This document shows positions 6,518-12,090 of a DNA stretch of 64,000 nt, piece by piece. Each line of letters starts with the position of its first letter. The first letter of the stretch is position 1. The notes under the pieces were generated by a model. The model was not told where the DNA came from. It did not search any database and saw only the letters and a program-made list of their open reading frames with translations. The position numbers and the translations under genes were made by a program. Source of the DNA: Magnetococcales bacterium (GTDB lineage Bacteria; Pseudomonadota; Magnetococcia; Magnetococcales; Magnetaquicoccaceae); assembly GCA_015231915.1 (NCBI GenBank), contig JADGAR010000012.1, positions 20,099 through 84,098 of the forward strand. Direction: 5' to 3'.

Positions 6518-8917
6518 TCAATTTTCTAAAAAGCGATAGGTTTTTGCATTGGTCGCCAGTCGTTCGATCTGCTCCATGGCCTGATTGGCGGAGAGATGGA
6601 ATTCACGGGTCAAGGTCTCGTAGACATGGGCGTATTCGTTGCGCAGGTTGGTGGCGAAGATGCCGGGGTCGTCGGTGGCCAGACAAACCGCCGGCAGATG
6701 ATCCCGCTCCAGCCCTTCCTTGATCCCCAGCCAGCGCCAGAGGTGGTGCTCCTTGTGGGAGTGGTAGAAACTGATGCGGACGTTGCTGGTGGGCATGGAC
6801 TCGATGACGATTTCGCGTTCGTGCAGGATCTTGAGCAGGTTGGTTTGCATGGATTGCAGGATCTCTTTGTGGAAACGCCGGTCATGCAGCAGGTCTGCGG
6901 TGGTCCATTCCGCCCCGCGCGCGACGATGTCGGCGCGGTGATAGCGCACGAACAGATCGAAGGCGCGTGATTGGTGCTTTTTCGCCAGTTCGATCCCATC
7001 CCACTCCTCCCGGGCCAGGAAGTCCAGACTCTCCATGGTGTCGCGTTCTGGAAAGCAGGCGATCAGGGGATCCAGGCGACGCAACTTCCAGGCCTCCCAC
7101 AGAATATAGGGGGGCAACAGCTCGCCATAAATCTCCATGGCCAGTTTCTCGATTTCATCGCGAATCGAGGCCGGGGCCTCCTGGCCTGCGTTGTTCTCCT
7201 GTCCCAGGATGAAACGGGTGAAGAGCAGATTGTCCAGCCACTCCTGTTTGGTGATCGGGATGGAGGGTTGCATGGTGGAAAACCACAATTCCGGGTCGAT
7301 CCCCACTGCCGTGGCATGGCCGATGCGGTTGCCCCGTTTCAGATCCAGGAACATCACGGCCTCGTAAATGGCACGCAGGCCGGAAATGAGGTGGACGAAA
7401 TCCTCGCCGACGTGATAGGTGAAATTCACGAAACCCGCGCGGCGGAAGCGTCGGTAGAGGGGCGCGAACACCTCCGGTGCGGCGTAGAGTTCGTTGTTGG
7501 CCGCGTCGATGCCGGTCCAGTACCGTTGCACCAGCGGGAAATTGCGGCGGACCTCGAGCAGCGCCCCCGCCTCGCGCTCCAGACGGGTGCGCAAATTCTG
7601 ATTCCGCACCCCGAGTTCCGTAGGGCTTTCCTCTCGTTTGATGAAATGGGCAGTCAGGCGCAGTTGCATTTTTTTGGGATGCGGCAGTTCCCGGTTCCAG
7701 GACAGGTCGAAAGTGCGATATCCTTGAAATTCCGTATATCCAGAAAAGATGTTTTGCAATAGCGCCACATTCCCCTCATAGCTGTCTTTGGGGGAAAAAC
7801 GGCCTTCCAGATAAGAGAGATCCCGACCGCTTTTGCCGCTCAACTGGAAAAAACGGTCCCTGTATTCCTGTTCCGGGCCGGAGCGCAGATTGTTGTTGGG
7901 AAATTGTTCGAATTGACGGAACCCGAACTGCTCCGGCTGCTGCACAAAGAAGCCGTTGAAATAGCCCCACAGCAGCATGTAGAGGTGGTAGGCACGCACC
8001 ATCACTGCTTCGCAGGGTCTTGAAAAACAGTTCAACATGTGGACATGGAACATCCCTTCCAGAATGGCCGAGGATAGAGAGTCGAAAGCCGGATCGATTC
8101 TGGAGAGGGGGTGATACCAAGGAATGAGCAGTTGCGGGTCCGGCATGTCGTTCAGGTTGCGCAATTGATCGAACTTTGTACCTGTCAACTCCTCTCTGCC
8201 ATAAAGATGACGGATCATGGCCTCCCGCAGGCAGGCGGCAAGACGCAGGCGCTTGCAAAGCTCCTGCTCGGTAATCCCCGGTTCCTTCTGATCGAACTGC
8301 TGGCGGACAATGGGGTTGCCCAGGGCATTGCGGAACGCGTCACAGAAGGCATTGCCATTTTCCAGGGCGAACAGCCAGACCCGATCCGGGTCCGTGGTCC
8401 CGTTGAGGTGCATGTGGAGTTCCATCAGGCCGTGTTGCCGGATGAGTCGTTCCAGTTGCGGGATGTTGGGGGATGGCAAGGTGGTCGGGGAGAGATTCGG
8501 CTGCAAATAATCCTTCATATAAGAGAGCATATCCGTCCAGGCGGCACGTGGCGCGCCGAAGCGTTTGAAGAGGACGAACACATTCAGGGGCAGGGCGGGG
8601 ATGCGCGGCAGGATGCCCTGCCAGGTGTCCATCATGCGCGGTTTGACATTGACGCGCGATCCGTTGATTTCCAGGTATTCGTTTGTGACCCGCCGCAAGG
8701 TTTCATACAGAATGCCCTGCAAATCGGAGGTTTGGTTCAGGGCCTGGTCGAGGAGATTGGTGAAAAAATGGTCCGGGCGCTTGAAATCGATGTTGCGTTC
8801 GGCCAGGAGCAGCCGCTCGCGGATTTTTTCCGGGGTTGGCTGGAGACCGCGCAGATAGTCGAGCAGGCTTTCCGTGTCCGCTAAGAGCTGGCGCAGGATC
8901 AGGGAGGAGTCGTCCAC
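6518..8917 (-). CDS. rdrB: Divergent adenosine deaminase, RADAR-type RdrB
   Basis: 799 aa; GTG start 3 nt after the upstream ATPase stop. ADA motifs: MELHMHLNGTTD, TYHVGEDFVHLISGLRAIYEA, RIGHATAVGIDP, CLATDDPGIF. Size and ATPase partner match RdrB. Confidence 0.85.
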   Translation of the reverse strand: MDDSSLILRQLLADTESLLDYLRGLQPTPEKIRERLLLAERNIDFKRPDHFFTNLLDQALNQTSDLQGILYETLRRVTNEYLEINGSRVNVKPRMMDTWQGILPRIPALPLNVFVLFKRFGAPRAAWTDMLSYMKDYLQPNLSPTTLPSPNIPQLERLIRQHGLMELHMHLNGTTDPDRVWLFALENGNAFCDAFRNALGNPIVRQQFDQKEPGITEQELCKRLRLAACLREAMIRHLYGREELTGTKFDQLRNLNDMPDPQLLIPWYHPLSRIDPAFDSLSSAILEGMFHVHMLNCFSRPCEAVMVRAYHLYMLLWGYFNGFFVQQPEQFGFRQFEQFPNNNLRSGPEQEYRDRFFQLSGKSGRDLSYLEGRFSPKDSYEGNVALLQNIFSGYTEFQGYRTFDLSWNRELPHPKKMQLRLTAHFIKREESPTELGVRNQNLRTRLEREAGALLEVRRNFPLVQRYWTGIDAANNELYAAPEVFAPLYRRFRRAGFVNFTYHVGEDFVHLISGLRAIYEAVMFLDLKRGNRIGHATAVGIDPELWFSTMQPSIPITKQEWLDNLLFTRFILGQENNAGQEAPASIRDEIEKLAMEIYGELLPPYILWEAWKLRRLDPLIACFPERDTMESLDFLAREEWDGIELAKKHQSRAFDLFVRYHRADIVARGAEWTTADLLHDRRFHKEILQSMQTNLLKILHEREIVIESMPTSNVRISFYHSHKEHHLWRWLGIKEGLERDHLPAVCLATDDPGIFATNLRNEYAHVYETLTREFHLSANQAMEQIERLATNAKTYRFLEN

Positions 8918-8920
8918 GCC

Positions 8921-12007: not shown

Positions 12008-12061
12008 GCCGCACGGCTCCTGGAAACGCTGGAGAATGTCATGGTTATTAAAATACTCCGC

Positions 12062-12090
12062 ATGATATCGTTTCTTGGTTTGTCAGTCAA
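12062..12090 (-). promoter_or_regulatory. Predicted sigma70-type promoter for rdrAB
   Basis: Minus strand TTGACT (12090-12085), 17-nt spacer, TATCAT (12067-12062), about 55 nt upstream of the rdrA ATG; AGGAG Shine-Dalgarno before the ATG. Confidence 0.6.

What the first reader, a model, noticed from the sequence alone, without database searches (positions are those of the whole stretch)
6518..12090. RADAR-type anti-phage operon (RdrA ATPase plus RdrB adenosine deaminase)
Seen: a 1028-aa ATPase (SGPRGSGKTSFLL, LVMFDDIDTH) is followed after 3 nt by a 799-aa protein carrying all adenosine-deaminase active-site motifs (HMHLNG, HVGED, IGHA, TDDPG) but about twice the length of housekeeping ADA. 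Established: the RADAR defence system pairs a large RdrA ATPase with an oversized RdrB deaminase that form a supramolecular complex and deaminate adenosine nucleotides/RNA upon phage infection. Inference: this is a complete two-gene RADAR locus without the accessory membrane protein (RdrC/RdrD) found in some loci. It would be a divergent ortholog inserted among housekeeping genes.
Basis: partly seen in the sequence, partly recalled or inferred. Interest (0 to 1): 0.85.

Follow-up and report, generated by a model that had tools for sequence, protein, structure and literature searches.

The report
Two-gene RADAR anti-phage system, Magnetococcales

Summary
On the minus strand a 1028-aa ATPase (8921-12007) is followed after 3 nt by a 799-aa adenosine-deaminase-like protein (6518-8917, GTG start). 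RdrA and RdrB are the top families in PADLOC and NCBIfam. A PDB search finds E. coli RdrB at E=1.8e-82 over residues 73-796. A predicted model superposes on the whole E. coli RdrB chain (TM 0.83-0.86, against under 0.3, query-normalised, for ordinary deaminases). The ATPase's only strong fold matches are RdrA structures. All 12 catalytic residues named for E. coli RADAR are present. The rdrA-rdrB order is kept in nearly every related locus where both genes could be seen. Both genes fall far below NCBIfam's equivalog cut-offs (131 of 600 bits, 150 of 800), but the divergence (RdrB 28% to E. coli) is like that between experimentally proven RADAR systems. Only one of ten other genus genomes has the pair, at the same site, a synteny breakpoint with lower G+C, which suggests acquisition by transfer. 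No accessory membrane gene adjoins it. It is a new member of a known system; defence activity, assembly and inosine chemistry are inferred. The hypervariable RdrA C-terminus, with a magnetococcal-only tail, is the only unusual part.

The parts
8921..12007 (-). rdrA: 1028-aa AAA+ ATPase. Walker A G76-K77-T78, Walker B D230-D231, sensor 1 D262, sensor 2 R369; crown helix around W158-L169; variable C-terminal lobe
   Evidence: PADLOC RdrA 2.8e-20; NCBIfam RdrA 5.3e-38, below the cut-off; PDB 8fnt RdrA 2.5e-27, with profile 7.5e-104; Foldseek RdrA ring 8e-25, TM 0.61/0.73; residues; crown
6518..8917 (-). rdrB: 799-aa deaminase, GTG start. Zinc ligands H168, H170, H502, H534, catalytic E505 (counting the GTG as residue 1), TDDPG motif, RdrB-type insertions
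   Evidence: PADLOC RdrB 4.5e-29; NCBIfam RdrB 1.1e-43, below the cut-off; PDB 8fnv 1.8e-82; Foldseek 8fnv 9.8e-41, TM 0.83/0.86; residues
8924..9295 (-). 3' part of rdrA (RdrA residues 905-1028): variable linker and magnetococcal-specific helical tail
   Evidence: identity falls to 7-20% outside the magnetococcal trio; a tail profile from the three magnetococcal RdrA proteins hits only the window and sister-species copies among the ORFs of the fetched loci
12062..12090 (-). candidate rdrAB promoter (TTGACT, 17 nt, TATCAT), about 55 nt before the rdrA start; the -35-like box is kept in the sister species
   Evidence: consensus scan, two-species alignment; weak evidence

Best explanation
The two genes are a complete two-gene RADAR anti-phage operon (rdrA, rdrB), a divergent orthologue in Magnetococcales. 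Most likely RdrA forms an AAA+ ring that docks through its crown helices on an RdrB shell and, on phage infection, licenses the zinc-dependent RdrB sites to deaminate ATP and dATP to ITP and dITP. That spoils the nucleotide pool and stops phage replication. Shown here: the two gene families, their order, the catalytic residues and the predicted monomer folds. Inferred from E. coli RADAR (PMC9994260): oligomers, trigger, substrate, protection.
For: Best PADLOC and NCBIfam families are RdrA and RdrB. PDB sequence matches to E. coli RdrB (1.8e-82, residues 73-796) and RdrA (7.5e-104 by profile). Predicted RdrB (pLDDT 91) superposes on 8fnv over 831 columns with TM 0.83/0.86; housekeeping deaminases and Cad1 give 0.24-0.29 normalised to the query. 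RdrA matches only RdrA structures strongly. All 12 active-site residues named for E. coli RADAR align with identical residues. rdrA lies directly upstream of rdrB in essentially all related loci long enough to show it. Tree: query, sister species and Magnetococcus YQC-5 form one clade (support 100) inside a broad RdrB family from many phyla.
Against: Scores are far below NCBIfam equivalog cut-offs (131/600 and 150/800 bits). Overall identity to E. coli RdrA is only 19%. Two of the three crown residues tested in E. coli (K150, E151) are not conserved (Y155, Q156); R162 is K167. The RdrA model is of middling confidence (pLDDT 76). No phage, enzyme or expression data. The scanned neighbours are housekeeping or signalling genes, not a defence island.
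Confidence: 0.93

Rival explanations
1. A RADAR-derived pair with a changed job: same fold and assembly, but a different deaminase substrate or trigger (for example a nucleotide signal or RNA), so it is related to RADAR but does not act by ATP-to-ITP conversion.
For: Only about 19% identity in RdrA, a clade-specific RdrA tail and non-conserved crown charges; scores below curated equivalog cut-offs.
Against: All catalytic residues and the full RdrB fold are kept. Proven RADAR systems from E. coli, C. rodentium and S. suis differ from each other by about as much and all defend (PMC9994260).
Confidence: 0.05
2. An oversized housekeeping adenosine/AMP deaminase that happens to lie next to an unrelated ATPase.
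For: The C-terminal part matches Pfam A_deaminase and TIGR01430.
Against: Ordinary deaminases cover only part of the protein and score far lower than RdrB in sequence and structure. Gene pairing is conserved across many phyla. The gene is absent from 9 of 10 genus relatives.
Confidence: 0.005
3. A decayed, non-functional RADAR remnant.
For: The operon has lower G+C than its surroundings (rdrA 52%, rdrB 58%, window 61%) and is rare in the genus.
Against: Both frames are intact with all catalytic residues, and both are also intact in the sister species at 69-72% identity.
Confidence: 0.015

Closest known systems
RADAR of E. coli P0304799.3 (RdrA 8fnt/8hr7, RdrB 8fnv/8fnw)
   Same: Gene order, both full-length folds, zinc histidines, catalytic Glu, Walker A/B, sensors 1 and 2
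   Different: 28% (RdrB) and 19% (RdrA) identity; RdrA 81 aa longer with an unrelated C-terminal tail; crown contact residues differ
Unannotated RADAR of Magnetococcales WMHbin3 (PDZX01000001) and Magnetococcus sp. YQC-5
   Same: Closest relatives: RdrB 72% and 55%, RdrA 69% and 43%; shared RdrA tail; the WMHbin3 copy lies at the same genomic site
   Different: Ordinary between-species divergence
Cad1 / CARF-adenosine deaminase of type III CRISPR
   Same: Deaminase core that acts on ATP in defence
   Different: Has a CARF sensor domain and no partner ATPase; only weak match (PADLOC 1.5e-9; query-normalised TM about 0.24-0.29)

Membership tests
RADAR | rdrA and rdrB in tandem | tested here: met
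   3-nt gap, same strand; same order in nearly all related loci
RADAR | RdrB: oversized deaminase with RdrB insertions, zinc histidine tetrad and catalytic Glu | tested here: met
   full-length superposition on 8fnv; H152/H154/H498/E501/H530 all conserved
RADAR | RdrA: AAA+ ATPase with Walker A/B, sensors 1 and 2, and helical C-terminal lobe | tested here: met
   seven of seven residues conserved; RdrA structures are the only strong fold matches
RADAR | NCBIfam NF041743/NF041744 equivalog score cut-offs | tested here: not met
   131 of 600 and 150 of 800 bits. This cut-off marks close equivalogs and is a naming threshold, not a defining feature of the system; PADLOC models match
RADAR | RdrA crown contacts to RdrB | tested here: inconclusive
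   crown helix framework W-L-L-G-L kept; charge-swap residues K150/E151 not conserved, R162 is Lys; these columns vary across the family
RADAR | heptamer-dodecamer assembly, ATP/dATP deamination, phage protection | not testable with these tools
   needs protein and phage work
Housekeeping adenosine/AMP deaminase | about 330-370 aa single domain, scores above ADA cut-offs | tested here: not met
   799 aa; 60 bits against a cut-off of 217 for TIGR01430
Cad1 (CARF-ADA) | CARF domain and type III CRISPR context | tested here: not met
   no CARF domain by Pfam; no CRISPR-type genes among the neighbours scanned

The most novel reading that the evidence does not exclude
The magnetococcal RADAR lineage uses a lineage-specific RdrA C-terminal tail (RdrA residues about 950-1028) as a swapped-in phage sensor, so that RdrA's hypervariable C-terminus is the recognition module of RADAR in general.
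Probability: 0.1. Interest if true: 0.6.

Novelty: new member of a known kind. Interest (0 to 1): 0.25.

Why it matters
RADAR is rare (270 of about 38,000 genomes in PMC9994260). This adds an intact lineage in Magnetococcia, shows that curated equivalog cut-offs miss such systems, and gives pairs of diverged RdrA proteins in which the conserved ATPase and the hypervariable C-terminus can be separated to ask what senses phage.

Tried and rejected
Housekeeping deaminase: rejected by length, score and fold. Cad1: rejected, no CARF domain. A hidden third gene upstream: ORF 12087-12365(-), 92 aa, has no family match, and the aligned region of the sister species diverges with indels like non-coding DNA. 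Adjacent cNMP-binding gene (5727-6446) as an accessory: rejected, since it has close counterparts in most genus genomes that lack RADAR, often next to the Nudix gene. Pycsar-like cyclase hit at 2150-4339: it is a Cache-HAMP-cyclase, an ordinary signalling protein by domain make-up. A first search with the cNMP gene used a wrong frame and failed. Papers on Magnetococcales defence: none found in the library.

Full report
Observation. The two ORFs are present as described: rdrA 8921-12007(-), 1028 aa, and rdrB 6518-8917(-), 799 aa with a GTG start, separated by 3 nt. The genome lies in Magnetococcales: its nearest relative in named collections is Magnetococcales bacterium WMHbin3, and the closest named proteins are from Magnetococcales HQM03 and Magnetococcus sp. 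YQC-5.

Identity of the proteins. PADLOC gives RdrB 4.5e-29 and RdrA 2.8e-20 as best families; NCBIfam likewise, with 150 of 800 and 131 of 600 bits, below equivalog cut-offs. Pfam sees only A_deaminase in the C-terminal part of RdrB and weak P-loop hits in RdrA. Against PDB sequences, RdrB hits E. coli RdrB at 1.8e-82 over residues 73-796 and RdrA hits E. coli RdrA at 2.5e-27, or 7.5e-104 with a 30-sequence profile over most of the chain. L108 was confirmed as an almost identical copy of the structurally solved E. coli RdrB and used as reference. The zinc histidines, catalytic Glu, Walker A, Walker B, sensor 1 and sensor 2 residues named in PMC9994260 are all identical in the window proteins. 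RdrB residue numbers are one lower than those given here because that alignment omitted the GTG start codon.

Structure. AlphaFold2 predicts RdrB at pLDDT 91. Foldseek aligns it to 8fnv over 831 columns, TM 0.83/0.86, E 9.8e-41; the next group, ordinary deaminases, begins at 2.7e-6 with query-normalised TM 0.29. The RdrA model (pLDDT 76) matches the RdrA structures 8hr8/8hra/8fnt at 8e-25 to 6e-20 and S. suis RdrA at 3e-7; nothing else is below 1e-3.

Relatives and gene order. A scan of one genome for each of 85,488 species found 298 relatives, of which 80 were fetched. In nearly all loci long enough to show both genes, an RdrA-like ORF lies directly upstream of rdrB on the same strand. The tree puts the window with WMHbin3 and YQC-5 (support 100) within a clade of mainly environmental sequences, inside a family spread over many phyla; E. 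coli RADAR lies in a separate clade. RdrB identity to E. coli is 28% over 755 columns, RdrA 19% over 819. Proven RADAR systems show 24-28% in the conserved part of RdrB and 22-25% in the RdrA ATPase domain, so this divergence is normal for RADAR.

Distribution and site. Among eleven genomes of the genus only the window and G001 carry the pair; several of the others are incomplete, but three that are 96-98% complete lack it. In G001 the whole stretch from the cyclase to mnmA is collinear. In relatives without RADAR the right flank (cspA-GNAT-ThiO-mnmA) is kept but the left flank (Nudix, cNMP) lies elsewhere, often with those two genes still together. The operon therefore sits at a synteny breakpoint, and has lower G+C (52 and 58%) than most neighbouring genes (57-69%). 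This fits acquisition by a common ancestor of the two species; the mechanism is not shown. No tRNA adjoins it. In the class, 7 of 48 genomes have some RdrB-type match, in at least two distant lineages.

What is variable. The RdrA ATPase region (residues 63-420) is 32-52% identical to other homologues (78% to the sister species), while the last 120 residues fall to 7-20% outside the magnetococcal trio. A profile of the tail from those three hits only the window and sister copies among all ORFs fetched. The E. coli crown contact residues K150, E151, R162 correspond to Y155, Q156, K167, but those columns vary in the whole family and the helix framework is kept.

Verdict. The mechanism (ATP/dATP to ITP/dITP by an RdrA-RdrB assembly) is inferred from E. 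coli RADAR (PMC9994260). Confidence 0.93 for membership and this mechanism together; function untested.

Noticed in passing
window 48443-50233 (+): 596-aa protein that joins an N-terminal TerD domain to an FtsK alpha domain and FtsK/SpoIIIE motor, which also gives strong PADLOC hits to SspH and mads_8. It looks like an unusual domain fusion.
   Followed up: partly
L024 (G012), L026 (G030), L025 (G026), G046:C86: Other Magnetococcia carry a second, very distant lineage of RdrB (795-1024 aa), in two cases with an RdrA-type gene directly upstream, and those tested match PADLOC RdrA/RdrB.
   Followed up: partly
window 5582-6446 (+): A short ORF (about 58 aa from 5582) precedes a cNMP-binding protein; related cNMP-binding proteins are numerous in the genus (13 matches in this genome).
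   Followed up: no
window 2150-4339 (-): Cache-HAMP-adenylate/guanylate cyclase that scores 1.7e-32 against a Pycsar cyclase model; by domains a signalling cyclase, a likely false positive of defence scans.
   Followed up: partly
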